Assembly (NCBI GenBank): GCA_025964675.1 | Contig: JAOPYI010000146.1 | Location: 62,001-126,000 of the forward strand | Direction: 5' to 3' | Length of the DNA: 64,000 nt | From: Sphaerisporangium sp. | Lineage (GTDB): Bacteria > Actinomycetota > Actinomycetes > Streptosporangiales > Streptosporangiaceae | Part shown: positions 15,457 through 40,600 of the stretch, piece after piece | Numbering within the stretch: position 1 is the stretch's first letter | Layout: each line of letters opens with the position of its first letter | Translations under genes and position numbers: made by a program | The notes under the pieces: model-generated | Databases searched by the model: none | Seen by the model: the letters and a program-made list of their open reading frames with translations, nothing else | Told to the model about the DNA's origin: nothing

Positions 15457-15464
15457 GAGCTCTC

Positions 15465-16473: not shown

Positions 16474-16509
16474 TACTACTCCTTATATCGTTAAGTCGTT
16501 ACATGTGTT

Positions 16510-17219: not shown

Positions 17220-17839
17220 GCCCGGCTCCAGGATGACGCGGCGGTGCCTTCGAGCGCGCGGCGGGCGGCCTCGGCGGCCTGCCGCACATCGGACTCGCGG
17301 CCGGAGAGGTAGACCCGCCCGGTCGCGCCCATCATGCGGTAGTCGACCACCTTGATCTCGGCGGCCTTCTCGGCCTCGTTGACCGCCAGGATGGCGTACG
17401 AGGCGGGCTGGCACTCCAGCACGAACAGCGACTCGCCCGGCAGCGCGAGCGATCCGACCCGGTTCCTGTTGATCAGGAACGCGTGCTGCCCGTCCAGGCT
17501 GGACACGATCTCCGAGGCGAGGATGCGCGGCGGCACGGCGTCGGCGGCCGTGGCCCCGAGCTGGTCCAGCACCGCGCCCGCGGCGGCGCGCACCTCGCCG
17601 ATCTGCCCGTGGAACTCCAGGTAGCCGAACTGGCGCTCCACCACCAGGACGCCCGCCTTCACGTCGGCGTGCTTGAGCGCCACGTCGGTCAGCGGTTCGA
17701 TGTCCAGGCCCGGGGCGATCTCGATGATCTGGGCCGCCTGGTTGAGCCGGGGCAGCGCGCCGCGCATCCAGGTGCCGAGGTAGCACATGGTCTGTGGCTG
17801 CAACTGGTCGATGAAGATGAAGGAACGCAGCTCGGCCAT
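17216..17839 (-). CDS. BMC-T tandem-domain shell protein
   Basis: A 207-residue BMC-T protein that begins MAELRSFIFIDQLQPQTMCY. The first BMC domain holds IEIAPGLDIEPLTDVALKHA and VERQFGYLEFHGQIGEVRAA; the second holds GQHAFLINRNRVGSLALPGE and MMGATGRVYLSGRESDVRQA. It is a paralogue of the 15465-16196 protein but lacks its N-terminal extension. It starts 2 bases after the stop of the aldehyde dehydrogenase with GTGAGG upstream, and its own stop overlaps the next gene. It is probably one of the two trimeric facet or pore components. Confidence 0.92.
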   Translation of the reverse strand: MAELRSFIFIDQLQPQTMCYLGTWMRGALPRLNQAAQIIEIAPGLDIEPLTDVALKHADVKAGVLVVERQFGYLEFHGQIGEVRAAAGAVLDQLGATAADAVPPRILASEIVSSLDGQHAFLINRNRVGSLALPGESLFVLECQPASYAILAVNEAEKAAEIKVVDYRMMGATGRVYLSGRESDVRQAAEAARRALEGTAASSWSRA

Positions 17840-17841
17840 GG

Positions 17842-20696: not shown

Positions 20697-20710
20697 CCCG
20701 GTCCCATCGG

Positions 20711-20737
20711 TTCGGTCTAGTAATCGGTAGGACCGAA
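20711..20737. promoter_or_regulatory. Candidate GntR operator in the divergent BMC promoter
   Basis: A perfect 7-bp inverted repeat TTCGGTC (20711-20717) / GACCGAA (20731-20737), 13 bases apart, with inner GGTCTAG and TAGGACC half-sites. It sits 15 bp upstream of the phospho-lyase start and in the 234-bp region shared with the divergent permease. HutC-type regulators bind GGTCTAGACC-like sites, so the locus GntR is the likely ligand. Confidence 0.5.
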
Positions 20738-20930
20738 TACTTCACCAGGTCGACCTTATGCGTCAATGGTCCGACTTGTGAGGATTCGGAAACACGAAAG
20801 GTATTGCTTGGATCAGCCGTTGAATGGCAGCATTTGCGCACCTCGAGTGACTCCACCCCACGTCGAGGGCGTCCGGCGCAGGAGGCCACGGCATCCCTGT
20901 ACGACGCTGGTTCCCCGGAAGGGCACAGTT

Positions 20931-25746: not shown

Positions 25747-28029
<2,283 letters not shown>

Positions 28030-28107
28030 CGGGACAGTCCCTGTAAGGGCGGAACGGCTGTCCGGTCCACCGCCAACGCTCGGGTACGCATTCATGCTCC
28101 TTCGGGG

Positions 28108-28179
28108 GGCACCGGCGGCATTACCGGTCATCTTGAGAAAGACGTCGTCGAGTACAGGTTTGCGCAACCCTATTCCCCA
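28108..28179 (-). pseudogene. C-terminal remnant of a DrrA-type ABC ATPase
   Basis: Directly upstream of and in frame with the UvrA-like gene, the minus strand reads LRKPVLDDVFLKMTGNAAG. This is the characteristic last segment (TLDDVFLxLTG) of DrrA-family drug-export ATPases. The rest of that gene is missing: upstream of about 28170 the sequence changes to an unrelated coding-like fragment on the other strand. It fits a former drrAB-drrC resistance operon. Confidence 0.6.
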
Positions 28180-28318
28180 CGGCCACCTGCCCGCGCTGGA
28201 GCTCTACCAGGTTCCCGGCGAGAGCCCGATCTCCCGTCCAGCCCTGCTCCAGGAGGTCGCCCCCGACTTCACCGAGCGGTTCCCGATGTTGATCTGGCTC
28301 GAGGGCGACGAGCGGTTC
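28163..28318 (+). pseudogene. Unidentified coding fragment, plus strand
   Basis: About 52 codons with strong G/C at third positions read RNPIPHGHLPALELYQVPGE, SPISRPALLQEVAPDFTERF and PMLIWLEGDERFSW. There is no start or ribosome site, the left end abuts the drrA-like remnant and the right end runs into the 3' end of the citE-like gene. It appears to be an internal piece of a lost gene; I do not recognise the family. Confidence 0.4.
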
Positions 28319-29141
28319 AGCTGGTCGTCGTGGGGGTGGTGGCCAGGGTGCGGACGGCGTCGGTGAGGACGCTTCTGGCCTGGCGGACCACGGCCTCGTC
28401 GACGAAGCGGCCGTCCGGGAGGGCGACGGCGCCGACTCCGGCCGCCGCCACGACCTCGTTGGCCGCTGTGACCTCCTTCTCGGTGGGACGGTAGGCCGCC
28501 TCGATGACCGCGAGCTGGGCCGGGTGGATGGCGGCCCGGCCGCGAAAGCCCAACGTGCGGCCGACCCGGCAGGACTCGGCGAGGCCTTCCAGGTCATGGA
28601 AGTCGGTGTAGACCGACTGGACGGGCGCGGGCAGCCCTGCCGCCCTGGCGGCGACCACGAGACGGGAACGCGCCCAGGCGAGCCCCGCCTCGTCGCTGAC
28701 GCCGAGGTCGGCCCGCAGGTCGGCCTCGCCCAAGCCGATGCTCGCGACCGCCGGATCGGCCGAGGCGATCTCGTAGGCCCGTTCGAGGCCGAGAGCGGAC
28801 TCGATGAGCGGGTGCAGCTCGACGCCGGGCACGGCCTTGGCGACGTCACGGACATCGTCGGCCGACTGGACCTTCGGCACCCGGATTCCGGCCGTGCCCG
28901 CGCACAGGCCGCTGATGGCGTGCAGGTCCACCTGGCCGCAGGCAGTGCGCACGTCGTTGATCCGGATCTGGACGCGCGGCTGCGGGGTGGCGAGCAGCGC
29001 CACCACCTCGGCCCTGGCCATGCCCTTGTTGTCCGGCGCGACGGCGTCCTCGAGGTCGACGATCACTACGTCGGCGGGCCCGGCGAGCGCCTTGGCCACG
29101 AGCGCGGGCCTGTCGGCCGGCGCGTACAGCCAGGTCAGCAT
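28317..29141 (-). CDS. HpcH/HpaI aldolase / citrate lyase beta-like (CitE) protein
   Basis: A 274-residue CoA-ester lyase-like protein. VVIVDLEDAVAPDNKGMAR is the substrate and metal-binding start, IRVPKVQSADDV follows, and GLGEADLRADLG and GRAAIHPAQL complete the family signature. Such stand-alone CitE proteins cleave malyl-CoA, citramalyl-CoA or related 3-hydroxyacyl-CoAs. The class III CoA-transferase 40 bp upstream would provide the CoA thioester, so the pair may activate and split a C4-C6 hydroxy acid. ATG 29141 has GGAG 8 bases upstream. Confidence 0.82.
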   Translation of the reverse strand: MLTWLYAPADRPALVAKALAGPADVVIVDLEDAVAPDNKGMARAEVVALLATPQPRVQIRINDVRTACGQVDLHAISGLCAGTAGIRVPKVQSADDVRDVAKAVPGVELHPLIESALGLERAYEIASADPAVASIGLGEADLRADLGVSDEAGLAWARSRLVVAARAAGLPAPVQSVYTDFHDLEGLAESCRVGRTLGFRGRAAIHPAQLAVIEAAYRPTEKEVTAANEVVAAAGVGAVALPDGRFVDEAVVRQARSVLTDAVRTLATTPTTTS

Positions 29142-29181
29142 GAGATCACTCCGTCTGCAGGCGCGTGCGGCGAGGTCGGCA

Positions 29182-30354
29182 TCAGATCACTCCCTTGTCG
29201 CGCAGGGCTTCCATGTCGGCGGGGGAAAGTCCCAGTTCTGAGAGGAGGTCGGCCGTGTCGGCGCCGTGGGCGCGGCCGGTCCAGCGGATGTCGCCGGGTG
29301 TGTCCGAGAGGCGGAACATGACGTTCTGCATCCGCAGCGGGCCGAGTTCCGGGTCCTCCACGGTGGTGACGGCGTCGAGGGCGGTCAGCTGCGGATCGGC
29401 CAGGACGTCCCGCACGTCGTAGATCGGCGCCACGGCCGCCTGTGCTTCCTCGAACGCGGCGAGGACCTCCTCGCGGGTGCGGGCGGCGACCCACGCCGCT
29501 ACGGCCCCGTCCAGCTCGGCGACGTGCTCCACCCGTCCGGCGCCGGTGGCGAACCACGGCTCGGCGATGTACTCCGGCCGCCCGACCAGGCGCATGACGC
29601 GCTCGGCGATGTTCTGCGCCGAGGTCGAGACGGCCACCCAGGAGCCGTCCGCGCACCGGTAGGTGTTGCGCGGCGCGTTGTTCACCGAACGGTTGCCGGT
29701 GCGCGGCGGCACGACCCCGAGCCGGTCGTAGATCGTCGGCTGGGCGCCGAGCACGGTGAGGATGGGCTCGATGATCGACATGTCGACCACCTGCCCCGTG
29801 CCGGTGGATTCACGCGCGCGGAGCGCCGCCATCACGGCGTAGGCCGTCGCGAGGGCGCAGATGCCGTCGGCGAGGCCGAACGGCGGCAGGGTCGGCGGCC
29901 CGTCCGGCTCGCCGGTCATCGCGGCGAACCCGCTCATCGCCTCGGCCAGCGTGCCGAAGCCGGGCCGCTTCGCGTACGGCCCGAACTGGCCGAAGCCGGT
30001 GACGCGGGCTAGGACCAGGCGCGGGTTGGCCTCGCGGAGCCGGTCGTAGGACAGGTTCCATCGTTCCAGGGTTCCCGGACGGAAGTTCTCGATCACGACG
30101 TCGGCGTCACGTACCAGTGCGAGGAGCAGGTCCTGGCCTTCGGCCGCCGAGAGGTTGAGGGTCATGGTCCGCTTGTTGCGGCCCAGCATCTTCCACCACA
30201 GACCACCGGGTCCGTGCCCTCGGGAGGGGTCCGGCTTGGCGGGATGCTCGACCTTGACGACCTCCGCGCCGAAGTCACCGAGCAGCATCGCCGCCATCGG
30301 CCCCGCGAACAGCGTGGCAAGGTCGAGCACACGGACGCCCTCCAGGGCTTTCAT
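29182..30354 (-). CDS. CaiB/BaiF class III CoA-transferase
   Basis: A 390-residue class III CoA-transferase. MKALEGVRVLDLATLFAGPM and LLGDFGAEVVKVEHP are the standard N-terminal blocks, with the catalytic aspartate expected in the ADVVIENFRPGTLERW to GRPGFGTLAEAMSG-like region (here RPGFGTLAEAMSGFAAMTGE). It moves CoA between carboxylic acids. ATG 30354 has GAGGAAC 6 bases upstream; the in-frame reading to 30459 is not conserved. It follows ribokinase by 52 bp and precedes the CitE-like lyase, so it may be part of the same LacI-controlled unit or a separate acid-catabolic pair. Confidence 0.87.
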   Translation of the reverse strand: MKALEGVRVLDLATLFAGPMAAMLLGDFGAEVVKVEHPAKPDPSRGHGPGGLWWKMLGRNKRTMTLNLSAAEGQDLLLALVRDADVVIENFRPGTLERWNLSYDRLREANPRLVLARVTGFGQFGPYAKRPGFGTLAEAMSGFAAMTGEPDGPPTLPPFGLADGICALATAYAVMAALRARESTGTGQVVDMSIIEPILTVLGAQPTIYDRLGVVPPRTGNRSVNNAPRNTYRCADGSWVAVSTSAQNIAERVMRLVGRPEYIAEPWFATGAGRVEHVAELDGAVAAWVAARTREEVLAAFEEAQAAVAPIYDVRDVLADPQLTALDAVTTVEDPELGPLRMQNVMFRLSDTPGDIRWTGRAHGADTADLLSELGLSPADMEALRDKGVI

Positions 30355-30406
30355 CGGTGTTCCTCCATGATCGTGGCCCCGCCCTGCCGGGCCAGGCGGG
30401 CAGAGG

Positions 30407-31282
30407 TCATCTGAGAGCCTTGTCGATCTCGGTACGGCCGGGCATGGAGGTGCTGGCACCCTTTCGCTGGACCGACAGGGCAGCCGCCATGGCGGCGAAA
30501 CGCAGGGCCTCTTCCTGGGGCCTCCCCTCGGCGCGGGCCACGGCGAGCGCGCCGACGAAGGTGTCCCCCGCGGCCGTGGTGTCGACGGCCTTCACCGGTA
30601 CGGCCGGCACGCGCAGCCGCTCGCCGGAACGCGACCCGTACAACGCGCCCTCCCCGCCAAGCGTGATCACCGCTTCGGGAACAAGGTCCAGCAGCGCATC
30701 GAGCGCTTCGCCAGGGTCGGCGTGGCCGGTTATCGCCTCGGCCTCGTGCTCGTTGGGCACGATCAGGTCCACGGCGGCGAGCAGCTCGCGCGGCAGCTTC
30801 TGAGCGGGGGCGGGGGTGAGGATCACGGGGACCTTCGCCTGGCAGGCGGCCTCCACCACGGCCTCCATGGGCAGCTCCAACTGGAGCAGCAATGCGCCGG
30901 AGCGGCGGATGACCGCGAGGTCGTCCTCGGAGACTCCGGTCACGGTGCCGTTCGCGCCGGGGATCACGATGATCGAGTTGCCGCCCTCGTCGTCGACGAC
31001 GATGTGCGCGACGCCGGAGGATCCCGGTACGACCCGGAGGCGGGTCACGTCGACGCCCGCCGATTCCAGCGACGCGCGCATGACCGGCCCGAACGCGTCG
31101 TCCCCCACCGCCCCGACGAAGGAGACATCGGCACCGGCACGAGCCGCGGCGATGGCCTGGTTCGCTCCCTTGCCGCCGGGGATCGTGCTGAACGCCCGTC
31201 CGGTCACCGTCTCACCCCGCTTGGGGGCTTTCGCTGTGTAGGCGACCAGGTCCATGTTGGCGCTGCCGAAAACCGAGATCAT
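30407..31282 (-). CDS. rbsK: Ribokinase
   Basis: A 291-residue PfkB-family sugar kinase. The N-terminal substrate motif is IPGGKGANQAIAAARAGADV, and the C-terminal catalytic motif is DTTAAGDTFVGALAVA with the base aspartate in AGD. Overall similarity is to RbsK, which makes ribose 5-phosphate. It lies 162 bp downstream of four ADP-ribosylglycohydrolase genes served by a sugar ABC importer, so released ribose is the obvious substrate. The kinase would feed the pentose phosphate pathway. Confidence 0.88.
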   Translation of the reverse strand: MISVFGSANMDLVAYTAKAPKRGETVTGRAFSTIPGGKGANQAIAAARAGADVSFVGAVGDDAFGPVMRASLESAGVDVTRLRVVPGSSGVAHIVVDDEGGNSIIVIPGANGTVTGVSEDDLAVIRRSGALLLQLELPMEAVVEAACQAKVPVILTPAPAQKLPRELLAAVDLIVPNEHEAEAITGHADPGEALDALLDLVPEAVITLGGEGALYGSRSGERLRVPAVPVKAVDTTAAGDTFVGALAVARAEGRPQEEALRFAAMAAALSVQRKGASTSMPGRTEIDKALR

Positions 31283-31354
31283 CGTATGTCCTCTCGCATG
31301 CCCGCCACCCGGCGGCCACCAATGGCCCGCGACCGCTGAGGCACCAAGATGATG

Positions 31355-31380
31355 GCCTGTCGCCTAGCTTGCCTGTCGCC
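31355..31380. repeat. Direct repeat upstream of ribokinase
   Basis: GCCTGTCGCC occurs at 31355-31364 and 31371-31380, 16 bp apart, with a third GGCCTGTC at 31426-31433. The 162-bp gap 31283-31444 before rbsK holds no gene, so this may be a regulator site or promoter-linked repeat. Confidence 0.3.
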
Positions 31381-31444
31381 CTGGGGCGGTCACGGAGTCC
31401 GGATCGCCAAGATACCGAGATCATCGGCCTGTCCCTGGCAGCCA

Positions 31445-32875
31445 TCACCGGTCCGCTAGCGCCAGGGTGCGGCGGGTGAGTTCGTCGAAGCCGATGCCGT
31501 CGAAGCCTCGCATGCTGCTGGACAGCCGGTTCTTCAGTGCCCATTCGCGGGGGATGCCCGAGGCGCCGAGCAGGCCGCCCGCGATCGAACCCACCGTCGC
31601 CCCCGCCGAGTCGGTGTCCCAGCCCGCGGCCACCGCGCCAGCGATCGAGGCCGTGAAATCGCCCCGCCCGTGGGTCAGGGCCGCCGCGATGAGCGCCGCG
31701 TTGTTGATCGTGTGGACCCAGTGCAGGCCGCCGTGCCGCTCGTACAACCGGTCCACGACCCGCTCGAAGTCCGGCTCGGATTCGGCGTGCGCCACGGCCT
31801 CCCGCACGGCTCGCGCCAGGCGGGACTCCACGGGCACGACGGAGAGGCCCGCGGCGACCACCTCCTCTACCGAGGAGGCCACGAGAGATCGGGCGCACAT
31901 GGCCGCGACCATCATCGCGCCGTAGACGCCGTTGGCGGTGTGGCTGAGGCGGGCGTCCCTCCAGGCGAACACGGCCGCCGTGCGCGGGTCCCCCGGGTTG
32001 GCCCAGCCGTACACGTCCGCCCTGATCAGGGCGCCGATCCACTCTCTGAACGGGTTGCGCCATGTCGCTGTGCGTGGCGGTTCCATCCCGTCCAGCAGGT
32101 TGCGGTACGCCACCCGCTCGGCGGTGAAGACGCGGCCGGCCGGTAGCTCGTCGAGCCACATCGTGCCGACGTCGGCGGTGGTGAAGTCACGGCCGAAGCG
32201 CTCCAGCAGGGAGAGGGCGAGGAGCGGGAAGTTCAGGTCGTCGTCCTCGGGCACGCCGTCGATGTTCTCCGCCAGCGAGTTGGCGGCGCTACGCCTGTTC
32301 CAGGGCCAGCGGGCGGCCACGTCGCCCGGCAGGCCGATCGCGGTGAACCAGCCACGGATCGGCCAGTTCCCCGTGGTCTCCGCGATCTCTCTGATGCCTT
32401 CGCGTGGGATCTTCTCCACCGGCTTGCCCAGCACGCACCCGGCGGCGCGCCCCAGCCAGGCCCCGAGCAGCCGATCAGGAAGCCTGCCAAAGAAATCCAC
32501 ACGGTCAGGAAGCCGCTCCCGGTCGATGGCCACCGCCGCGAATCCCCCGGCGGCGGTCGCGGAGATCGAGGGAAGGTCGGACGGCTCGGGAAGGGAGGAC
32601 TTGATCAGCGCCAGCTCGTCCAGAAGCTCCCCCGCCAGGCTGCGCAGCCGCGGCGTGACGGGCTCGGGGGAGGCGCCCGCCCGGGGTGGCGCGTCATGTC
32701 CCCCGGCGGCGTGCCAGCGCGCGGCGATCCCGGCGACCTCCGGGGAACGGCCGTCCTCGGCCGCCTGGCGCAGCTCGTGCCCGACCAGGTCCTCCGGCTG
32801 TACCCAGGTGAGCCGGATGAGGCCGTCGGGCACGCCGAGATGTCCACCGTCAGGCGCGTGAAGGGGGCCGGTCAT
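31445..32875 (-). CDS. ADP-ribosylglycohydrolase family protein, long type
   Basis: A 476-residue member of the DraG/ARH fold. An N-terminal region of about 150 residues (LIRLTWVQPEDLVGHELRQA) precedes the hydrolase domain, which starts at LLGAWLGRAAGCVLGKPVEK. The usual GDALG is GCVLG here. The first metal site reads VPEDDDLNFPLLA in place of TDDT, and the C-terminal site is AAGWDTDSAGATVGSIAGGL. This variant pattern occurs in a recognised long subgroup and need not mean inactivity. ATG 32875 overlaps the upstream stop (ATGA). It probably hydrolyses a ribosyl bond; the substrate is unknown. Confidence 0.82.
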   Translation of the reverse strand: MTGPLHAPDGGHLGVPDGLIRLTWVQPEDLVGHELRQAAEDGRSPEVAGIAARWHAAGGHDAPPRAGASPEPVTPRLRSLAGELLDELALIKSSLPEPSDLPSISATAAGGFAAVAIDRERLPDRVDFFGRLPDRLLGAWLGRAAGCVLGKPVEKIPREGIREIAETTGNWPIRGWFTAIGLPGDVAARWPWNRRSAANSLAENIDGVPEDDDLNFPLLALSLLERFGRDFTTADVGTMWLDELPAGRVFTAERVAYRNLLDGMEPPRTATWRNPFREWIGALIRADVYGWANPGDPRTAAVFAWRDARLSHTANGVYGAMMVAAMCARSLVASSVEEVVAAGLSVVPVESRLARAVREAVAHAESEPDFERVVDRLYERHGGLHWVHTINNAALIAAALTHGRGDFTASIAGAVAAGWDTDSAGATVGSIAGGLLGASGIPREWALKNRLSSSMRGFDGIGFDELTRRTLALADR

Positions 32876-34044
32876 GCCGTTTCCCCTGTCGAGGTGTCCC
32901 AGGTGAGGGAGGTGAAGGCGGCCTCGTGGGCGCGGCGGGTTGCGAGGTCGCCGGCGTGGACCCTGCGGGCGACCTCGGCGATGGACACGCCCGGAGCGAC
33001 GAGGTCGATCCTGCTGGCCTCGGCCACGGGGTCGAGCCACTCGGACGGCACCCCCTTGGCGCCGGAGAGTGCCCCGGCTATCGCGCCGCCCATGCTGGCG
33101 ATCGAGTCGGCGTCGCGGCCGTAGTTGACGCCTCCAAGGACGGTGTCGCGGTAGTCGCCACCCGAGATGAGCAGGAAGGCGAGCGCCAGCGGCAGTTCCT
33201 CGATGCTGTGCAGGCGGCTCGGCCGCCGGGCGCCGAGCCCCTGGTCACGGTAGGTATCGGCGACGGTGTCGTACGGCGCGACCGCCTCGCGCAGCGCGCC
33301 GAAGGACCCATCCCAGTGGCCGAGGCCGCGGGCCCGCTCGCAGACGGCCTCAATGGCGGCCCGCGTGCCGTCACGCGCCAGCCGCAGGCAGGTCGCGACC
33401 ACCGAGTCGGCGGTCGCGCCGGGGCGCATGGCCTCGGCGACGGCGGCGGCGAGCACCCCGGCGGCCTCCCTGCCGTAGCTGGACTGGTGGGCGCCCGCCA
33501 GGTCGATCGCCTCGGCGTACGCCGCGTCGGGGTTGGCGGCGTTCACGATGCCGACCGGTGCCATGTACATCGCGGCGCCGCAGTTGACGATGTTGCCGAC
33601 GCCGGCCTCACGCGGGTCCACGTGGCCGTAGTGCAGGCGAAGGACCAGCCACTTCTCGGCGAGGAAGACCCGGTGCAGGGGCAGGGCCTCGGCCTCCAGC
33701 TCGGGGATCCAGCGCTTCTCCCCCATCATCTGCGGCACCAGGTGCTCGGCCGCCGCGTACGCGTCGAGGTGGCCGTCCACCTTCTCGTACACGCGGATGA
33801 GCGCGTGCGTCATGAGGGTGTCGTCGGTGACGTGGCCGTCGCCCTTGTGGTACGGCGCGATGGGCCTGGCGTTGCGCCAGTCCTCGAAGTACGGCGGGAC
33901 GATGCCCGTCACGTACCCGTTGTAGCGTTCCTGGATCTGCTCGGGCGTCCAGCCCTCGGTCGCGCCGCCGAGCGCGTCGCCGACCGCCGCGCCCGTGACG
34001 CATCCGACGGCCTTGTCGGTCAGCAGGTCGTCCAGCGGCGTCAT
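32872..34044 (-). CDS. ADP-ribosylglycohydrolase family protein
   Basis: A 390-residue protein with intact family motifs: GCVTGAAVGDALGGATEGWT at the start, the metal triad HVTDDTLMTHA, and the C-terminal GRDADSIASMGGAIAGALSG. Enzymes of this fold use two Mg2+ ions to break the bond between ribose and an amino acid, nucleobase or phosphate-linked group. It is the third of four tandem paralogues in an importer operon, and is linked to both neighbours by ATGA overlaps. No signal peptide, so it acts in the cytosol on imported or endogenous substrate. Confidence 0.86.
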   Translation of the reverse strand: MTPLDDLLTDKAVGCVTGAAVGDALGGATEGWTPEQIQERYNGYVTGIVPPYFEDWRNARPIAPYHKGDGHVTDDTLMTHALIRVYEKVDGHLDAYAAAEHLVPQMMGEKRWIPELEAEALPLHRVFLAEKWLVLRLHYGHVDPREAGVGNIVNCGAAMYMAPVGIVNAANPDAAYAEAIDLAGAHQSSYGREAAGVLAAAVAEAMRPGATADSVVATCLRLARDGTRAAIEAVCERARGLGHWDGSFGALREAVAPYDTVADTYRDQGLGARRPSRLHSIEELPLALAFLLISGGDYRDTVLGGVNYGRDADSIASMGGAIAGALSGAKGVPSEWLDPVAEASRIDLVAPGVSIAEVARRVHAGDLATRRAHEAAFTSLTWDTSTGETA

Positions 34045-35012
34045 ACGAGTCCTCCAGCGATGTCGATGAGATCCGTTCCGGCCAGGTCGGGCAGGCCGCA
34101 GCCGGTCAGCGTGCGGGCGGCGGCGCGCCAGCCCTCGGGGATGGCCTGGTAGCCGGTGAAGGCCCCCGTGAGCGCCCCGGTCAGGGCGGGGGCGGAGTCG
34201 GCGAGCGACGGCAGGCACGCGGCGGCGGGCACGGCGGCGCTCAGCGCGCCGCCCGACACCTCCGCGAGCGCGAGGGCGACCGCGACCGTCTGCGCGGCGG
34301 CGACGCCGTAGCTGTAGACGTGGTCGAGCAGGGCCGCGTCAAGGGCCGGGACCGCCGCGAAGGGGTCACCCGCCTCGCGCGCCACCGCGAGCGCGGTCCT
34401 GGTCGCGTGGCCGATCGCGGTGTCCTCCGGCAGCTCCGCCAGCGCCGCCTCGACGGCCGAGGTCATCGGGCCGCCCGCGACCAGCTTGGCGACCGCCGCC
34501 GCCATCGCGACCGCGGCGTGGACGCCGTCCCCGGCGTTGGTGACCGAGGCGTCGGCCCTAGGGTCGGCCCCGATCGCCCCGAAGGCCACCGCCCGCACGG
34601 CGGCCGCGTCGTCGAAGAAGTGCGGGTTGTCGTGCCCGCTGGCCGGAGGGAGCTTGCCCGCCGCCAGGTTGTCGAGCGCCGACCGCACCGAGATCCGTAC
34701 CCGCAGGTCGGAGCGCCCCGCCAGCCTGCCGAACGCCTCGGCCCGGTCGTCGCGGATCGTCAGCGCGGTCCAGGCTAGCCACTCGGCGTCATCGGACGGG
34801 CCGATGGCCAGCGGCTCGACCGGCTGGTTCAGCGAGAACGGCACGGGCAGCGTCGTGACCCGGTGCTCCTCGGCGAAACCGTCCAGCTCCCTTTCCAGCC
34901 TCCTGCTCCACGGCGCCAGCAGCCTGGAGCGGTGCCGCGCCGACGGCCAGCCGGCCGCGTCGCCGATCGCGAGGCCGATGAAGGCGCCCCGGATCCTGTC
35001 CCCCGATGACAT
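34041..35012 (-). CDS. ADP-ribosylglycohydrolase family protein with degenerate metal site
   Basis: A 323-residue paralogue. The N-terminal motif GAFIGLAIGDAAGWPSARHR is kept, the TDDT triad reads GPSDDAEWLAWTA, and the C-terminal metal motif is reduced to LPSLADSAPALTGALTGAFT, so one of the usual DxDT aspartates is missing. A conserved-looking TNAGDGVHAAVAMAAAVA lies in between. It may bind rather than hydrolyse, or use one metal. ATG 35012 has a strong GAGGAGGG site after a 16-bp gap from the previous gene. Confidence 0.8.
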   Translation of the reverse strand: MSSGDRIRGAFIGLAIGDAAGWPSARHRSRLLAPWSRRLERELDGFAEEHRVTTLPVPFSLNQPVEPLAIGPSDDAEWLAWTALTIRDDRAEAFGRLAGRSDLRVRISVRSALDNLAAGKLPPASGHDNPHFFDDAAAVRAVAFGAIGADPRADASVTNAGDGVHAAVAMAAAVAKLVAGGPMTSAVEAALAELPEDTAIGHATRTALAVAREAGDPFAAVPALDAALLDHVYSYGVAAAQTVAVALALAEVSGGALSAAVPAAACLPSLADSAPALTGALTGAFTGYQAIPEGWRAAARTLTGCGLPDLAGTDLIDIAGGLV

Positions 35013-35028
35013 GTCCCTCCTCTATCCG

Positions 35029-35997
35029 CTATGCCGATTTCCATGAAGGGCTCGCCGCCACGAGTTCGGTGGCGGCGTCGAGTATGTGACGGCCGGCGAC
35101 CGCTGGGAGGCATCTGCCCGTGACCGGGCCGATCTCCCTGGCCCAGCGTTCCGGTACGGCGGCCTCGCCGCGCCCCGCCCCCGCGAGGGCGCCGGCGATG
35201 GCCGCGGTGGTGTCGGCGTCCCTGCCGAGGTTGGCCGCCGAGACCACGGACTCCTCCACCTCGCCGGCGCCCATGAGGTATCCGGCGAAGGCGAGCGCGA
35301 CCGCCTCGGGGGCCAGGTCCGTCCATGGGTAGTGGCGCACCACCACGGCCTCGTACAGCTCCTCGACCGAGCCCGCCGCCACGGCCGCGACGGCTGCCCG
35401 CAGGTTGCGTGAGGTCCAGGAGTCCCCGGGGACCGCGGCGATCCCGGCTTCGACCACCTCGCCGGGCAGGGCACCGGTCATCGCGACGGCCACCGCCGCC
35501 GCCACGGCCTGGCCGCCGTACACGCCCTCCCCGCTGTTGCTGACCACGCCGTCGACCGCCACCAGCCGCGCCGCCTCGCCCGGGTCCCCCGCGGCGAAGA
35601 TCCCGTACGGCGCGGCGCGCATGGCGAGGCCGTCCGACCATCCGTGCTGGTGCCACAGGCCGGACAGCGGCGGATCGATGCCCCGGCGGAGCGCCTGGAC
35701 GGCGCCGAGCTCGGAGAAGCCGGCGCCGCGCATCGGGCCGTCGATCATGGGGATGATCTGCTCGCGGTACTCCCTGGCGACGTCGGCGGAGGTCATCGCC
35801 GCGCCGTACCGGCACAGCAGCGAGGAGGCGAAGATGGTGTACTCCGTGTCGTCGGTGCCACCCTTGCCCGGCTCGATCTCGGTGAGGCGGCCCCAGCGCC
35901 GGGCGATCTCCTCCGGGGGCAGGTTCTCGGCGGGCCGCCCGAGGGCGTCGCCGGCCGCCAGTCCGAGCAGGCACCCCCGGGCGCGGGTCGGTTTCAC
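35029..35997 (-). CDS. ADP-ribosylglycohydrolase family protein
   Basis: A 322-residue paralogue with the most canonical sequence of the four: RARGCLLGLAAGDALGRPAE, metal triad GGTDDTEYT (residues 46-54) and the C-terminal LGRDADTTAAIAGALAGAGR. SNSGEGVYGGQAVAAAVAVA is another family block. GTG 35997 overlaps the stop of the sugar-binding protein (GTGA), which ties it directly to the importer. It is the best candidate for a fully active Mg2+-dependent ribosyl hydrolase in this operon. Confidence 0.87.
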   Translation of the reverse strand: MKPTRARGCLLGLAAGDALGRPAENLPPEEIARRWGRLTEIEPGKGGTDDTEYTIFASSLLCRYGAAMTSADVAREYREQIIPMIDGPMRGAGFSELGAVQALRRGIDPPLSGLWHQHGWSDGLAMRAAPYGIFAAGDPGEAARLVAVDGVVSNSGEGVYGGQAVAAAVAVAMTGALPGEVVEAGIAAVPGDSWTSRNLRAAVAAVAAGSVEELYEAVVVRHYPWTDLAPEAVALAFAGYLMGAGEVEESVVSAANLGRDADTTAAIAGALAGAGRGEAAVPERWAREIGPVTGRCLPAVAGRHILDAATELVAASPSWKSA

Positions 35998-37298
35998 TTG
36001 GTGTACCGCGCCAGAACCTTGTCGCCCTCCTCGACGAGCGTCTTGGCCGCCTGGTCGAGCGTGATCTTGTCGGCGAAGTACTGCTGGAGGGTGGGCGTGG
36101 CCACCTTGCTCTTCCACTCGTCGAACCCGTTCACCCGGAGGTAGGGCGCGACCACCAGGTTCTTGGCCGAGGCCGTCGCCACGTCCCAGCCGTTCTCCTT
36201 GGTCGTCATGGAGGGGTCGCTCGCGGCCTTCGTACTGGTCGGGAGCAGCCAGTCGCCCTTGGCGAGCTTGGCCTGGTTGGCGCTGTTCAGGAAGAAGGAG
36301 ATGAACTTGGTCGCCTGGTCGGGGTACTTGCTGTCGGCGGCGACCGACAGCGTCTGCGAGGTGGCGCCCTGATTGGTGCTGGTGCCCTTCAGCGGCGGGA
36401 TCGTGATCCACTGGAAGCCGGGAGGAGCCTGCTCTACGACCTGCTGGCGCAGGTAGACGCCCGCCGGGAGCAGGGCGTACTTGCCCGCGTAGAAGCCGGG
36501 CAGCGGGTCGGCGGTGCCCATGCCGAGCGCGGACGGGTCGGCCGACTTGTCCTTGTAGAGCTGGTCGTGGATCCGCTGGAGCACCTCGCGCTCCTCCGGG
36601 CCGACCTTGACCGTCGCCTTGGCGCCGTCGGTCTGGAAGAACGTGCCGCCGAAGTTCAGGCCGAGGTTGAGCACCTTGTTGACCGGCGACTTCAGCGGCC
36701 ACGCAACCCCGAAGCTGCCGTCCTTGGTGAGCTTCTTGCTGATCTGGGCGAACTCGTCCCAGGTCCACGGTTGGTCCGGGGTCGGGACGCGCACCTTCGC
36801 CGCGTCGAGCAGCTTCTTGTTGGCGATGATGACCTGCGACTCCTGGAGGAACGGCACGCCGTACACGCCCTTGCCGCCCTTGCCGTCGCCGAAGGTGACG
36901 GTGTCCCAGGCGGGTTGCGGGATGTCGCTCTTCAGGTCGGCGGGCAGCTTTCCTGACAGGTCCGCCAGGTAGCCGCGGGAGGCGAACCCGGCGAGCGCCG
37001 GTGAGTCGTCGTGGATGACGTCCGGCGGGTCACCGGCCTCGAACGACGTGACGAGCTGGTCGTTGACGTTGTCCCAGCTTCCCTGGACGTACTCGACCTT
37101 GGTGTTCGGGTTGGACTTGTTCCACTCGTCGACGATCTGCTTGTTGGCGGCGATGGACTCCTTCTGCCATGCGAGGCTCAGGAACTTCAGGGTCACCGGC
37201 CCGCCGGCCTTGTCGCCACCACCGGTGGCCGCCGACGAGCAGCCGGCCGCCAGCGCGACGATCGCCGCCGCCGCGGCGAGTGCGGTTCTTGTACGCAA
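35994..37298 (-). CDS. Sugar ABC transporter substrate-binding lipoprotein
   Basis: A 434-residue extracellular solute-binding protein of family 1. The TTG start at 37298 has GGAG 6 bases upstream and gives a lipoprotein signal ending ALAAGC with C20 as the lipid anchor. VTLKFLSLAW, VEYVQGSWDNVNDQLVTSFE and GDPPDVIHDDSPALAGFA are typical of the MalE-like group. It delivers substrate to the two permeases encoded just upstream. Since four ribosyl-hydrolase paralogues follow, the ligand is probably a ribosylated or oligosaccharide-like compound rather than free ribose, whose importers belong to another family. Confidence 0.9.
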   Translation of the reverse strand: MRTRTALAAAAAIVALAAGCSSAATGGGDKAGGPVTLKFLSLAWQKESIAANKQIVDEWNKSNPNTKVEYVQGSWDNVNDQLVTSFEAGDPPDVIHDDSPALAGFASRGYLADLSGKLPADLKSDIPQPAWDTVTFGDGKGGKGVYGVPFLQESQVIIANKKLLDAAKVRVPTPDQPWTWDEFAQISKKLTKDGSFGVAWPLKSPVNKVLNLGLNFGGTFFQTDGAKATVKVGPEEREVLQRIHDQLYKDKSADPSALGMGTADPLPGFYAGKYALLPAGVYLRQQVVEQAPPGFQWITIPPLKGTSTNQGATSQTLSVAADSKYPDQATKFISFFLNSANQAKLAKGDWLLPTSTKAASDPSMTTKENGWDVATASAKNLVVAPYLRVNGFDEWKSKVATPTLQQYFADKITLDQAAKTLVEEGDKVLARYTK

Positions 37299-37333
37299 GA
37301 GATTCTCCAATCGGGGGTGCTGTGGCCAGGGGG

Positions 37334-38152
37334 CTATCCCTTGACGGCGCCGGTCATCAGGCCCGATCTGAGCCGTCTCTGGATGATCGCGAAGAACACC
37401 AGGCTCGGGATCGTGGCCAGCAGCGAGGCCGCCGCGAGCGGGCCTAGACGTACGACCCCCTCCGCGCCGGTGAACTTGACGAGGGTCAGTGGCAGGGTCG
37501 CCACGCCGGGGTCCTTGAGGACGACCAGCGCGAACAGGAACTCGTTCCAGGAGGAGATGAAGGCGAACAGCGACGTGGCCACGACGCCGGGGGCGAGCAG
37601 CGGCGCCACCACCTTCACCAGCGAGCGGACACGGCCCGCGCCGTCGACCGCCGCGGCCTCCTCCAACTCGCGCGGCACCGCGCGGACGTACCCCTGGAGC
37701 ATCCACAGCGCGAACGGCAGCACGAACGTGACGTGCACGATGGTGAGGCCGGGCAGGGTGTTCACGAGGTCCAGGCGCCGCAGCACCATGAACAGCGGGA
37801 TGATGATCAGGATGAACGGGAAGACCTGGCTGACCAGCACCCAGCCGACCGCGAGCCTGCTGACGAGCGAGCGGTGACGGGCCATCGCGTACGCCGCCGG
37901 CAGCGCGAGCACCACCGTGAGCACTGAGCTCGCGACGGCGACGACCAGGCTGCGCAGGGCGCTGCCGACGAGGTCCTGCTCGGCGAAGGCGTCGGTGAAG
38001 TTCGTGAGGATCGGATGGCGCGGGATCCAGGTGGGGGTCAGGCTCGCCATCTCCTGCGAGGTCTTGAGCGCCGTGGACAGCAGCCAGACCAGCGGGAACG
38101 CCAGGAATATCACGTACCCGAGCAGGGCGAGGTACTGAAGTGGCCTGCGCAT
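37334..38152 (-). CDS. Sugar ABC transporter permease (MalG type)
   Basis: A 272-residue inner-membrane permease with six helices. The cytoplasmic EAA loop is EEAAAVDGAGRVRSLVKVVA, which contacts the ATPase, and IPLFMVLRRLDLVNTLPGL is typical of MalG-like proteins. It begins one base after the stop of the MalF-type gene. No ATPase is encoded in the locus; actinomycete sugar importers of this class commonly share one MsiK-like ATPase encoded elsewhere. Confidence 0.92.
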   Translation of the reverse strand: MRRPLQYLALLGYVIFLAFPLVWLLSTALKTSQEMASLTPTWIPRHPILTNFTDAFAEQDLVGSALRSLVVAVASSVLTVVLALPAAYAMARHRSLVSRLAVGWVLVSQVFPFILIIIPLFMVLRRLDLVNTLPGLTIVHVTFVLPFALWMLQGYVRAVPRELEEAAAVDGAGRVRSLVKVVAPLLAPGVVATSLFAFISSWNEFLFALVVLKDPGVATLPLTLVKFTGAEGVVRLGPLAAASLLATIPSLVFFAIIQRRLRSGLMTGAVKG

Positions 38153-38153
38153 G

Positions 38154-39086
38154 TCAGTTCGCCTCCCGCAGCTGCCGCCCGATGTAGAGACCCAGCACGG
38201 CGAGCACGACGATCACGAAGGCGACGCCCAGCGTGGCGGCGTAGCCGAAGAAGCCGTAGCGGAAGGCCTCCTCGTAGGCGAAGAGCATCGGCAGCCGCGT
38301 CTGCCCGCCCGGGCCGCCCTGGGTGAGCACGTACACCAGGCCGAACTGGTTGATGTTCCAGACGAAGTCCAGCGAGGTGATCGTCACGATGACCGGGCGG
38401 AGCTGCGGGAGCGTGATGCTCCAGAAGCGGCGCAACGTCGTGGCCCCGTCCATGTGACCGGCCTCGTACAGCTCCTTGGGGACGGTCTGCAGTCCCGCGA
38501 GCAGCACCACCGTGGTCTGCGGCATGCCCGTCCAGATGCCGACGACGATGATCGCCGGGAGCGCGATGGAGAAGTCGTTGAGCCAGTCGACGTTGTGGCC
38601 GATCACCCCCAGCTGCTGGAGCACGCTGTTGAGGATCCCGGCGTTGGGGTGGTAGACGAGCCGCCACATCAGGCCGATGACCACCGGCGGCATCGCCCAC
38701 GGCACCAGCACGAGCACCCGCGCGAAGGACCGGAACCGCAGGTTCTCGTTCAGCAGCAGGGCGAGCCCGAGCGAGGCGAGGAACTGCAGCACGGTGACCG
38801 AGACCGCCCAGATCAGCCCGATGCGGAACGACGCCCAGAAGTCGCCGTCGGTGAGCAGGTCGCCGAAGTTGGACAGGCCCACGAAGGACGTCACGGCGTT
38901 GCGCCCTGACCTGGCGTCGGTGAAGGCCAGGAAGATGCCGTAGAGCAGCGGGCCGACGCTGAAGACCAGCACCGGCACGAGGGCGGGGAGCATGAGGATG
39001 AGCGTCTCGCGCCCCTGCCGGCCCTTCGTTCCCCTGCGAGGGCGATCCGTGGAGGGCCTTCGAGCTCTTTCGGCCGTCAGGGTCAT
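38154..39086 (-). CDS. Sugar ABC transporter permease (MalF type)
   Basis: A 310-residue permease. After a basic N-terminal tail the first helix is LILMLPALVPVLVFSVGPLL, and the EAA loop is YEAGHMDGATTLRRFWSITL. It pairs with the MalG-type subunit. ATG 39086 overlaps the stop of the LacI gene (ATGA); the in-frame reading to 39365 lies antisense to no conserved part and is ignored. The regulator-first gene order makes the whole importer and hydrolase set subject to the LacI promoter. Confidence 0.91.
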   Translation of the reverse strand: MTLTAERARRPSTDRPRRGTKGRQGRETLILMLPALVPVLVFSVGPLLYGIFLAFTDARSGRNAVTSFVGLSNFGDLLTDGDFWASFRIGLIWAVSVTVLQFLASLGLALLLNENLRFRSFARVLVLVPWAMPPVVIGLMWRLVYHPNAGILNSVLQQLGVIGHNVDWLNDFSIALPAIIVVGIWTGMPQTTVVLLAGLQTVPKELYEAGHMDGATTLRRFWSITLPQLRPVIVTITSLDFVWNINQFGLVYVLTQGGPGGQTRLPMLFAYEEAFRYGFFGYAATLGVAFVIVVLAVLGLYIGRQLREAN

Positions 39087-40096
39087 GGAGTCTCCTCCCC
39101 CATGGTGGAGGCGCGGGTCACGAGCCGGGGTTCGACGGTGACCACCCGGGGCGGCCGCTCGCCGTGGCGCAGGCGGTCGAGCAGGAGCTCGGCCGCGGCG
39201 CGCCCGCGCTCGGCGGAGCCCAGCGAGACGCTCGTCAGCGGCGGCCAGGCGAGCGTGGCGAGGTCGGTGTCGTCCATGCCGACCACGGCGACGTCCTCCG
39301 GCACCCGCCGTCTCTCGCGCCGCAGGACGTCGAGCGCCCCGAGCGCGATCAGGTCGTTGGCGCACAGCAGGGCGTCGAGGTCCGGCGCGCGTTCCAGCAG
39401 GCGGGCGGTCGCCCTGCCGCCGTCTGCGCGGTAGAAGTCGCCCACCTCGACCAGGTCCCGGTCGTACGGCAGGCCGAGTGCTTGGAGCGCCTCGGCGTAG
39501 CCCGCGGAGCGGTGGGCGCCGGGCACGGTGTCGAGCGGGCCGTTCACGAAGCCGATGCGGCGCCGGCCCAGCCCGTGGAGGTGCTCCACGGCCAGCCGCA
39601 CGCCCCTGCGGGAGTCGGCGCGCACGTTGTCGACATGGGTGCCGTCCGGCACGGTGCCGATGATCACGATGGGCGCGCGGGCGGAGGCGAACGTCTTCAG
39701 GTGCTCGTCGGTCACGCGCAGCGGGATCATGATGAGCCCGTCGATGTACCGCTCCCCGAGGCCACGCAGCACGTCGATCTCGTCGGCCGCGTCCACGTTG
39801 GTGGAGTGCAGGACGAGCCGGTAGCCGGCCGCCTTGAACACCGGCTGGATCTCGCGGATCATCGCGAGGTACACCGGGTTGCCTATGTCGGCCATCGCGA
39901 AGCCGAGCTGGTTGCTGCGCCGCGACTTCAGTGACCTGGCGACCGAGTTCGGCACGTAGCCGAGCTCGCGGGCGGCGCTCATCACGCGGCGCTCGGTCTC
40001 CGCCTTGGTGGGGAGCCCGTTGAGCACGCGCGACACCGAGGCGATCGATACGCCCGCGCGCTGGGCGATCGTCGTGATCGTCGGCCCGTCACTCAC
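39083..40096 (-). CDS. LacI family regulator of the ribosyl-scavenging operon
   Basis: A 337-residue LacI/GalR repressor. The DNA-binding head TITTIAQRAGVSIASVSRVL and hinge helix PNSVARSLKSRRSNQLG are canonical; the periplasmic-binding-like domain follows (LDALLCANDLIALGALDVLR, EDVAVVGMDDTDLATLAWPP). GTG 40096 has GGGGTGA upstream. It is the first gene of the operon and is preceded by two GTAAACGTTTAC palindromes, so it represses its own transcription together with the importer and hydrolases. A sugar or ribosyl compound is the likely inducer. Confidence 0.93.
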   Translation of the reverse strand: MSDGPTITTIAQRAGVSIASVSRVLNGLPTKAETERRVMSAARELGYVPNSVARSLKSRRSNQLGFAMADIGNPVYLAMIREIQPVFKAAGYRLVLHSTNVDAADEIDVLRGLGERYIDGLIMIPLRVTDEHLKTFASARAPIVIIGTVPDGTHVDNVRADSRRGVRLAVEHLHGLGRRRIGFVNGPLDTVPGAHRSAGYAEALQALGLPYDRDLVEVGDFYRADGGRATARLLERAPDLDALLCANDLIALGALDVLRRERRRVPEDVAVVGMDDTDLATLAWPPLTSVSLGSAERGRAAAELLLDRLRHGERPPRVVTVEPRLVTRASTMGEETP

Positions 40097-40119
40097 GTGT
40101 CACCCCGGTCGTCCGAAAT

Positions 40120-40166
40120 TGTAAACGTTTACAGAAAGTACCGTCAAGCCGCTGTAAACGTTTACG
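40120..40166. promoter_or_regulatory. Twin LacI operators
   Basis: GTAAACGTTTAC occurs at 40121-40132 (within the 14-bp palindrome TGTAAACGTTTACA, 40120-40133) and again at 40154-40165. The centres are 33 bp apart, about three helical turns, so two repressor dimers would bind the same DNA face upstream of the LacI gene. The central CG with flanking AAA/TTT is the classic LacI-family half-site design. Confidence 0.82.
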
Positions 40167-40267
40167 GAGTAAGAACATGTAACCTGTACGACACATCCAT
40201 CGTCAAGTCACGATCGGGTAAACACGGACAAATCCGACGCATCATCCGGATCGGGCAGGCCTTGTCA

Positions 40268-40417
40268 GTGCTCGTGGACGGTGGCGGGCGCGCGGGGTGG
40301 GTCTCGACCCCGTCCACCCACGCGATCCGCGTGACCGGCCTCGGGCTCGCGGTACTCGCCGTCGTCGCGGGAGCCCGCCTGCTCCCGCTACGGCGGCGCG
40401 GACGGTCAGGTCGATGA
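40268..40417 (+). CDS. Possible 49-residue single-helix membrane protein
   Basis: From GTG 40268 a short reading frame encodes one hydrophobic segment (IRVTGLGLAVLAVVAGARLL) followed by RRRGRSGR, which would be an inside-facing basic tail. There is no ribosome site, and the frame overlaps the end of the convergent 64-residue gene by 12 bases. It may be chance. The 40167-40267 part of this gap shows nothing. Confidence 0.22.
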   Translation: MLVDGGGRAGWVSTPSTHAIRVTGLGLAVLAVVAGARLLPLRRRGRSGR

Positions 40418-40600
40418 CTGCGGGGAGGTGGGCAGCTCGTCGTCGGGGTCGTAGGGCAGGAAGGAGGTCCCCAGCTTCGCCTGCCAGCCGACCGTCAGCA
40501 GCCTCCCGTTCCGCTCGTCCGGAGCCTGCGGGAGGAAGCCGATGTCGATCGGCGTGCCGAAGGCGACGGTGAGGAAGGGGGCGGGCGTGTTGAGGCTCAT
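40406..40600 (-). CDS. Small protein coupled to the amidase
   Basis: A 64-residue soluble protein (MSLNTPAPFLTVAFGTPIDI at the start, ending in PTSPQSST) whose ATG overlaps the amidase stop (ATGA). It has no signal peptide or transmembrane helix and no domain I recognise. The overlap shows it is translated with the amidase, so it could be an accessory or stability partner, or a duplicated scrap of a longer C-terminal region. Confidence 0.5.
   Translation of the reverse strand: MSLNTPAPFLTVAFGTPIDIGFLPQAPDERNGRLLTVGWQAKLGTSFLPYDPDDELPTSPQSST

What the first reader, a model, noticed from the sequence alone, without database searches (positions are those of the whole stretch)
30407..40166. Four different ADP-ribosylglycohydrolase paralogues built into a sugar-importer operon with ribokinase
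A LacI regulator, two permeases and a binding protein are joined by 1- to 4-base overlaps or short gaps to four tandem ADP-ribosylglycohydrolase-fold genes (322, 323, 390 and 476 aa), followed by ribokinase. The fold breaks bonds to ribose and ribokinase would trap the freed sugar. Four divergent members in one importer unit suggest stepwise or parallel breakdown of a family of ribosylated compounds taken from outside. I know of no described pathway with this exact composition; that is a statement of my knowledge, not a database result.
Basis: partly seen in the sequence, partly recalled or inferred. Interest (0 to 1): 0.85.

Follow-up and report, generated by a model that had tools for sequence, protein, structure and literature searches.

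The report
Conserved four-hydrolase sugar-conjugate catabolic operon
A soil actinomycete carries one tightly regulated set of genes that probably imports a sugar-linked molecule and takes it apart with four relatives of ADP-ribose-removing enzymes, a ribose kinase and two acid-processing enzymes; much of the set is shared with other actinomycetes, including Streptomyces, but what it feeds on is unknown.

Summary
In detail: four divergent PF03747 genes (322, 323, 390, 476 aa) follow a LacI regulator and a CUT1-type importer and precede a ribokinase. They are the genome's only four PF03747 matches. Two corrections. And the importer is optional: most Streptomyces loci examined keep hydrolases, CoA-transferase and lyase between gltB and lgt, which by synteny and numbering is S. 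coelicolor SCO2028-2033. Each hydrolase is its own clade. Three keep both metal motifs; ARHB lacks the first Asp of the second (69 of 69) yet accompanies ARHA in 63 of the 64 loci that have either. Two GTAAACGTTTAC operators bracket a promoter-like site and occur nowhere else in the 7.8-Mb genome. Best reading: a dedicated catabolic operon for an imported ribosyl conjugate; ribose goes to ribokinase, an acid aglycone is cleaved via CoA. The dedicated unit is well supported; the ribosyl chemistry rests on fold and kinase only. SCO2028 and SCO2030 were reported inactive on one ADP-ribosylated substrate. New variant of a known kind; substrate unknown.

The parts
40154..40165 (.). Operator 1, perfect palindrome GTAAACGTTTAC, upstream of the -35-like hexamer
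   Evidence: 2 matches in the window against 0.01 expected; only two places in the own genome, both here
40121..40132 (.). Operator 2, same palindrome, overlapping the -10-like hexamer
   Evidence: an AAACGTTT-centred palindrome lies upstream of LacI in 57 of 58 distinct loci
40118..40147 (-). Promoter-like site TTGACG-18-TACAAT
   Evidence: consensus scan of 28000-40600: 2 sites found against 0.5 expected; not evidence of function by itself
39083..40096 (-). LacI-family regulator (GTG start), 337 aa
   Evidence: PF00356, PF13377; no NCBIfam equivalog cut-off reached
38154..39086 (-). ABC importer permease 1, 310 aa
   Evidence: PF00528, 86.9 bits
37334..38152 (-). ABC importer permease 2, 272 aa
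   Evidence: PF00528, 70 bits
35994..37310 (-). Family 1 extracellular solute-binding protein, 438 aa (434 from 37298)
   Evidence: PF01547 135.5 bits; among its 52 solved relatives are chains named as arabino-oligosaccharide-, maltose- and acarbose/maltose-binding
35029..35997 (-). ARHA, ARH-fold protein, 322 aa, both metal motifs (TDDTE; GRDADT)
   Evidence: PF03747 189.0 bits; D260 and D262 in 71 of 71 aligned, D49 and D50 in the 69 of 71 that reach there
34041..35012 (-). ARHB, ARH-fold protein, 323 aa, second metal motif lacks its first Asp (LADS)
   Evidence: PF03747 94.7 bits; V, L, A or T at that position in 69 of 69
32872..34044 (-). ARHC, ARH-fold protein, 390 aa, motifs VTDDT and GRDADS
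   Evidence: PF03747 165.2 bits; D311 and D313 in 81 of 81
31445..32875 (-). ARHD, ARH-fold protein with an N-terminal extension of about 130 aa, 476 aa, motifs EDDDL and GWDTDS
   Evidence: PF03747 172.0 bits from residue 138 on; AlphaFold2 mean pLDDT 79.5; Foldseek best matches MJ1187, DraG, later ARH3; D420 and D422 in 81 of 81
30407..31282 (-). Ribokinase, 291 aa
   Evidence: TIGR02152 306.2 bits, cut-off 299.65; the only one of 21 matches in the genome over the cut-off, two others score 291.5 and 274.4
29182..30354 (-).
   Evidence: PF02515 415.9 bits; in 46 of 67 loci
28317..29141 (-). CitE-like acyl-CoA C-C lyase, 274 aa; last conserved gene
   Evidence: best NCBIfam model RipC_Ccl at 183.1 bits, below its cut-off of 375; with the CoA-transferase in 46 of 46

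Best explanation
A dedicated, substrate-induced catabolic operon. Without substrate the LacI regulator sits on two GTAAACGTTTAC operators at the promoter. The binding protein and two permeases (with an ATPase encoded elsewhere) import a ribose-bearing conjugate. In the cytoplasm metal-dependent ARH-fold enzymes cleave its ribosyl bonds; ARHA would work with ARHB, a partner that lacks one metal ligand, and ARHC with ARHD. Ribokinase phosphorylates the freed ribose into the pentose phosphate pathway. The freed acid aglycone is loaded onto CoA by the family III CoA-transferase and cleaved by the CitE-like lyase to acetyl-CoA and an oxo-acid. Shown by computation: gene order, conservation, near-exclusive operator, family assignments, metal motifs. 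Inferred: repression and induction, direction of flux, ribosyl chemistry, the pairings, the acid aglycone, the order of steps.
For: Family assignments. The gene order recurs in named loci of Sphaerisporangium, Streptosporangium, Nonomuraea, Microbispora, Jiangella, Nocardiopsis, Micromonospora and Streptomyces among others, in many with 4-base overlaps through ribokinase, CoA-transferase and lyase. Counts (n = 67): ARHA with ARHB 63, ribokinase 51, CoA-transferase with lyase 46, never one without the other. Control: 0 of 27 other ARH loci give a ribokinase, CoA-transferase or lyase hit. Operator: two places in 7.77 Mb, both here; in 11 relatives 18 of 20 exact sites are at this operon; palindrome upstream of LacI in 57 of 58. 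Four clades with supports 0.984 to 1.0. Metal motifs of ARHA, ARHC and ARHD kept; lyase acidic residues E114 and D141 invariant in 15 of 15. Patchy presence, 5 of 10 same-genus genomes with a close ARHD, fits a catabolic trait.
Against: Ribokinase is absent from 16 of 67 loci and CoA-transferase/lyase from 21; two loci (L090, L092) lack all three. The importer is missing beside the cluster in 26 of 67, and no AAACGTTT-centred operator precedes ARHA in 28 loci without LacI. The genome has two more strong ribokinase homologues (291.5 and 274.4 bits) and three more lyase homologues (34 to 39 percent). SCO2028 and SCO2030, presumed ARHA and ARHC orthologues, were inactive on U-alpha-ADP-ribose (PMC13036486). 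Binding-protein relatives point to oligosaccharides. The 162-base gap before ribokinase might hold another promoter, although the scan saw none.
Confidence: 0.45

Rival explanations
1. The operon degrades a glycoside whose sugar is not ribose: the ARH fold has been adapted to other sugars, and the ribokinase acts on a related sugar or serves a side branch.
For: Binding protein related to oligosaccharide-binding proteins; ribokinase missing in 16 of 67 loci; the loop near the active site differs from DraG's in all four; ARHD-like genes elsewhere follow a CUT1 importer, in L045 with a GH36 alpha-galactosidase gene near by.
Against: The kinase passes a curated ribokinase cut-off and overlaps ARHD by 4 bases in many relatives. 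The characterised ARH enzymes in the review passages I saw (DraG, ARH1, ARH3) act on ADP-ribosyl bonds (PMC7050489).
Confidence: 0.27
2. The four proteins are ADP-ribosylation erasers acting on proteins or nucleic acids, as the S. coelicolor homologues have been listed, and the operon context is incidental.
For: PF03747 membership. PMC9411070 lists SCO2028 to SCO2031 as uncharacterised DraG/ARH homologues, PMC5087735 lists SCO2028 to SCO2030 among putative ADP-ribosyl protein hydrolases (passages). Another S. coelicolor ARH protein, SCO5809, is active on phosphate-end ADP-ribosylated RNA (PMC11833690, passages).
Against: Conserved company of importer, ribokinase, CoA-transferase and lyase under a local operator. 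DraG and Tri1 equivalog cut-offs missed widely (best 60.2 against 337.05 and 47.2 against 490). SCO2028 and SCO2030 inactive on U-alpha-ADPr, the only test of them in the passages I saw.
Confidence: 0.13
3. Salvage of extracellular ADP-ribose, NAD or poly-ADP-ribose fragments as a carbon source.
For: Fold and ribokinase.
Against: The eleven conserved genes include no Nudix hydrolase, phosphatase or nucleotidase; CoA-transferase and lyase stay unexplained; DraG's adenine motif is not seen in ARHA.
Confidence: 0.06

Closest known systems
E. coli yegTUV with yegW
   Same: Transporter, one ARH-fold protein (YegU) and one sugar kinase (YegV) overlapping by 4 bases, beside a regulator gene (annotation). 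[quoted passage not shown]
   Different: One ARH instead of four; a predicted nucleoside:H+ symporter, not an ABC importer; GntR-type regulator; no CoA-transferase or lyase. YegU falls outside the ARHA-ARHD clades (in a group of 10 others, support 0.939; its exact place is poorly supported) and is 23 percent identical to ARHC over 328 residues and 29 percent to ARHA over 153.
S. coelicolor SCO2028-SCO2031 (presumably with SCO2032-2033)
   Same: In a Streptomyces relative (L114) the cluster lies between gltB-VIT1 and lgt-thioredoxin-trpA-trpB; numbering then makes SCO2028-2033 the four hydrolases, CoA-transferase and lyase.
   Different: No LacI, importer or ribokinase by that count. Treated in print as ADP-ribosyl hydrolase candidates. 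The S. coelicolor sequence itself was not read here.
DraG, Tri1, ARH1 and ARH3 ADP-ribosyl hydrolases
   Same: Fold (ARHD model) and, in ARHA, ARHC and ARHD, both acidic metal motifs.
   Different: Far below the DraG and Tri1 equivalog cut-offs; changed loop at DraG's GNGAAMR; different gene company.
Itaconate degradation operon (CoA-transferase, hydratase, C-C lyase RipC/Ccl)
   Same: A CoA-transferase next to a CitE-like lyase; the lyase's best NCBIfam model is RipC_Ccl and its best solved relatives are a citrate lyase-type chain 3qll and acyl-CoA lyase chains 8khl, 9nzb.
   Different: Lyase far below the RipC cut-off (183.1 against 375); no hydratase among the conserved genes; here the CoA-transferase is family III, in the itaconate operons it is of another family (recalled).

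Membership tests
ARH/DraG superfamily (PF03747) | Profile match over the curated cut-off | tested here: met
   All four, 94.7 to 189.0 bits against 26.2
ARH/DraG superfamily, ARHA, ARHC, ARHD | Both acidic motifs of the binuclear metal centre | tested here: met
   Second-motif Asp pair in 71 of 71, 81 of 81 and 81 of 81; first motif kept in the sequences that reach it
ARH/DraG superfamily, ARHB | Both acidic motifs of the binuclear metal centre | tested here: not met
   First Asp of the second motif is V, L, A or T in 69 of 69; first motif kept in 67, 2 gaps
DraG equivalog TIGR02662 | Equivalog cut-off 337.05 bits | tested here: not met
   ARHA 60.2, ARHC 50.2, ARHD 27.9; ARHB not listed at E 0.01
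Tri1 ADP-ribosylarginine hydrolase NF041672 | Equivalog cut-off 490 bits | tested here: not met
   ARHA 39.6, ARHB 24.3, ARHC 47.2, ARHD 25.4
DraG-type adenine recognition | ExxA motif contacting adenine | tested here: inconclusive
   No Glu in ARHA where DraG's aligned chain reads SEG-DAGNGAAMR. That this stretch is the ExxA of PMC7050489 is my reading of the chain letters; ARHB, ARHC and ARHD not settled
ADP-ribosyl hydrolase (activity) | Removal of ADP-ribose from a substrate | not testable with these tools
   Published for presumed orthologues only: SCO2028 and SCO2030 inactive on U-alpha-ADPr (PMC13036486, passages)
Ribokinase TIGR02152 | Equivalog cut-off 299.65 bits | tested here: met
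   306.2 bits
CUT1-type ABC importer | Family 1 binding protein with two BPD_transp_1 permeases | tested here: met
   PF01547 and two PF00528; no ATPase among the operon genes (that such actinomycete importers share an ATPase is recalled)
Family III CoA-transferase | PF02515 match over cut-off | tested here: met
   415.9 bits against 23.3; none of 7 specific NCBIfam models over its cut-off
Itaconate C-C lyase RipC/Ccl NF038242 | Equivalog cut-off 375 bits | tested here: not met
   183.1 bits
YegU group | YegU within one of the four clades | tested here: not met
   Groups outside ARHA-ARHD

The most novel reading that the evidence does not exclude
An undescribed catabolic pathway, widespread in actinomycetes including Streptomyces, in which ARH-fold enzymes have left ADP-ribosylation altogether. 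They work as two pairs, ARHA with ARHB (a partner that has lost a metal ligand) and ARHC with ARHD, and dismantle an unrecognised environmental riboside whose beta-hydroxy-acid aglycone is finished off by CoA-transferase and lyase. SCO2028-2031 would then be misfiled as de-ADP-ribosylating enzymes.
Probability: 0.33. Interest if true: 0.75.

Novelty: new variant of a known kind. Interest (0 to 1): 0.55.

Why it matters
ARH-fold proteins in Streptomyces have been counted among ADP-ribosylation erasers. A conserved gene set with ribokinase, CoA-transferase, lyase and often an importer with its own operator says that these four are more probably metabolic enzymes. It gives a defined operon in culturable soil bacteria, a ready inducer screen through a two-operator LacI system, and a test of whether a catabolic pathway uses a hydrolase-like protein without a full metal site as an obligate partner.

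Tried and rejected
Chance clustering: rejected by the own-genome count and conservation. Recent tandem duplication: rejected, each paralogue is its own clade with its orthologues. The UvrA-like gene (25747-28029) and the amidase (40597-42552) as operon members: no such gene stands beside the cluster in the relatives listed. A fixed gene after the lyase: the following genes vary between the 14 loci looked at, 12 of which have a lyase. The FGE-domain protein of some relatives was modelled, poorly (pLDDT 51.3), so no fold search was made on it; Pfam saw its FGE domain in 7 of 7 and a chance-level GH97 hit (E 0.21) in 1 of 7. Orphan importers in 5 of 12 genomes of an unnamed genus that I take for Streptomyces stand without LacI-operator or hydrolases; in 4 of the 5 glycogen- or trehalose-type genes are near by my own reading of their first residues; they did not reveal the substrate. 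First presence counts missed overlapping genes for ARHA and ARHB and were replaced by tblastn counts. A first regular-expression look at metal motifs was too strict and was replaced by alignments.

Literature: (ADP-ribosylglycohydrolase, ribokinase, ABC transporter, operon) listed one paper, on iron in Bacteroidetes, not opened. Searches listed no paper whose title or shown abstract start describes this operon; the lists of 15, 33, 50 and 80 were capped. Papers looked into, passages only: PMC10819704, PMC13036486, PMC9411070, PMC5087735, PMC5036795, PMC11833690, PMC7050489.

ARHD is therefore present in all by selection. 13 of the 80 were left out of the counts for short flanks. Gene calls in relatives are my own script's.
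Full report
What is there. The window lies in a 7.77-Mb genome of 313 contigs. Two same-genus genomes with close copies of the cluster, G003 and G007, have contigs of exactly the lengths of Sphaerisporangium perillae and S. corydalis contigs, so the host is most likely a Sphaerisporangium or close kin. On the minus strand eleven genes follow one another: LacI regulator, two permeases, binding protein, ARHA, ARHB, ARHC, ARHD, ribokinase, CoA-transferase, CitE-like lyase.

Why those two belong. In relatives the same order continues through them, often with 4-base overlaps: ribokinase/CoA-transferase/lyase in many Streptomyces loci, ribokinase/CoA-transferase in L066 and L081. Of 67 loci with enough flank, CoA-transferase and lyase occur in 46, always both. 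After the lyase the neighbours vary. In the window itself the gaps are 162, 52 and 40 bases, and no terminator-like site was found between 28000 and 40600 (shuffles give 2.4, so this is a weak negative).

Regulation. Two perfect palindromes GTAAACGTTTAC stand at 40121-40132 and 40154-40165, before the LacI start. A promoter-like TTGACG-18-TACAAT lies between them and overlaps the lower one. The palindrome occurs at no other place in the own genome. Of 11 relatives searched, 10 have exact sites, 20 in all; 18 are at this operon, one each lies elsewhere in G005 and G019, and G015 has only near-matches. An AAACGTTT-centred palindrome precedes LacI in 57 of 58 distinct loci; L043 has none. None precedes ARHA in 28 loci without LacI. 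So LacI looks like a local repressor with one main target.

The four ARH proteins. In a tree of 63 sequences each of ARHA, ARHB, ARHC and ARHD is its own clade (9 of 9 each; supports 0.984, 0.999, 1.0, 0.991). They are old, not recent copies. ARHA, ARHC and ARHD keep the Asp pair of the second metal motif in 71 of 71, 81 of 81 and 81 of 81 aligned sequences, window copies included. ARHB keeps the first motif but has V, L, A or T for the first Asp of the second in 69 of 69. ARHA and ARHB occur together in 63 loci, ARHB alone in 1, ARHA alone in 0, neither in 3. More distant ARHA/ARHB-like pairs sit by another LacI gene and CUT1-type importer in L050 and L054. This suggests, without showing it, that ARHB is a partner of ARHA; vertebrate ARH2 is likewise suspected to be inactive (PMC7050489, passages). 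ARHD has an N-terminal extension without a Pfam name; its model has mean pLDDT 79.5, and Foldseek's first matches are MJ1187 and DraG, with ARH3 from rank 7.

Are they ADP-ribosyl hydrolases? By superfamily they are relatives; by the curated DraG and Tri1 models they are not members. Where DraG reads GNGAAMR, ARHA to ARHD read SDGLAMR, DDAAAVR, NCGAAMY and WIGALIR. DraG's adenine-contacting ExxA (PMC7050489) seems to lie just before that loop, and ARHA has no Glu there; placing the motif is my reading. In a Streptomyces relative (L114) the cluster lies between gltB-VIT1 and lgt-thioredoxin-trpA-trpB, and the same gene lengths flank most other Streptomyces loci. That is where SCO2028-2033 must lie, since the trpCXBA locus contains SCO2038 (PMC5036795, abstract start) and SCO2028-2031 are four DraG homologues (PMC9411070, passages). 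The orthology is thus by synteny and numbering; the S. coelicolor sequence was not read. SCO2028 and SCO2030 were purified and showed no detectable activity on U-alpha-ADP-ribose (PMC13036486, passages). [quoted passage not shown]

Distribution. All 80 best named loci are from actinomycetes. Among 60 relatives 22 have a match to ARHD at E 0.001, some of them other ARH proteins; of 10 same-genus genomes 5 have a close ARHD, 77 percent or more, so presence is patchy. In an even sample of 198 genomes of the phylum, the own one included, 10 have an ARHD-profile match at 1e-40; 7 exceed 700 bits, all of them in the own class; the other three lie outside it and are weaker. Patterns among the 67 loci: importer, four hydrolases and ribokinase without CoA-transferase/lyase in 19 (mainly Nonomuraea); hydrolases, ribokinase, CoA-transferase and lyase without importer in 15 (Streptomyces); everything but the FGE protein in 12; hydrolases, CoA-transferase and lyase in 9 (Streptomyces); the remaining 12 in seven smaller patterns. 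In 12 genomes of one unnamed genus, which I take for Streptomyces because three of them show the same flanks, ARHD matches are found in 11 (10 at 59 to 64 percent, one at 50), and an orphan importer orthologue, away from the cluster, in 5.

Control. In 27 other ARH loci BLASTP with the window's proteins finds no ribokinase, CoA-transferase or lyase. Of these, L152 looks like a cluster cut by a contig end, L146 and L157 are short (6.5 and 12.8 kb), and the ARH gene of L150, a PF03747 match, was too divergent to be hit itself.

What it does. The most economical reading is uptake and breakdown of a ribose-bearing conjugate. The kinase passes the curated ribokinase cut-off; it is the only gene in the genome to do so, though two others come close. 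An acid part would pass through CoA to C-C cleavage: the lyase keeps E114 and D141 in 15 of 15 and resembles RipC/Ccl-type lyases most, but three other lyase homologues exist in the genome. That ribosyl bonds are cut is inferred from fold and kinase. The main rival is a non-ribose glycoside, which the oligosaccharide-type binding protein favours. Seven named loci add a protein of 625 to 658 aa with a C-terminal FGE-like domain; in L042 one is fused to ribokinase. Its N-terminal part could not be assigned.

Compared with what is known. E. coli yegTUV has the same logic in miniature and is itself unsolved, but YegU belongs to none of the four clades. None of the searches named in Tried and rejected listed a description of this operon; they cover one open-licence library, and I saw mostly titles and abstract starts. 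I rate it a new variant of a known kind, a sugar-conjugate catabolic operon, with an unusual enzyme set and a well-defined test.

Noticed in passing
window 14455-22457: A bacterial microcompartment locus: two BMC-domain proteins, a EutN/CcmL protein, aldehyde dehydrogenase, class III aminotransferase, APH-family kinase and an amino acid permease. It resembles the RMM-type amino-alcohol compartment (recalled, not tested).
   Followed up: partly
L084, 14414-15415: In Microbispora corallina the gene after the lyase begins like the window's APH-family gene at 14455-15456 (by reading the first residues), so the two loci may be neighbours there.
   Followed up: no
L039:11096-13174, L042:2648-5638, L043:6971-8914, L099:12210-14126: An uncharacterised family of about 650 aa with a C-terminal FGE-like domain lies downstream of ARHD or ribokinase, and is fused to ribokinase in L042. 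The rest of the protein has no significant Pfam match.
   Followed up: partly
L161-L165: Five genomes of an unnamed, probably Streptomyces genus carry an orphan orthologue of the importer (binding protein 50 to 55 percent identical) without ARH genes or operator near by.
   Followed up: partly
L045, L046: An ARHD-like protein (47 percent) directly follows a CUT1-type importer near a ROK regulator; in L045 a GH36 alpha-galactosidase gene is close by, hinting at ARH-fold proteins in other sugar operons.
   Followed up: no
L044:1-2057: An ARHD gene overlaps a nitrilase-superfamily (CN_hydrolase) gene by one base where others have ribokinase, which could hint at an amide in the aglycone.
   Followed up: no
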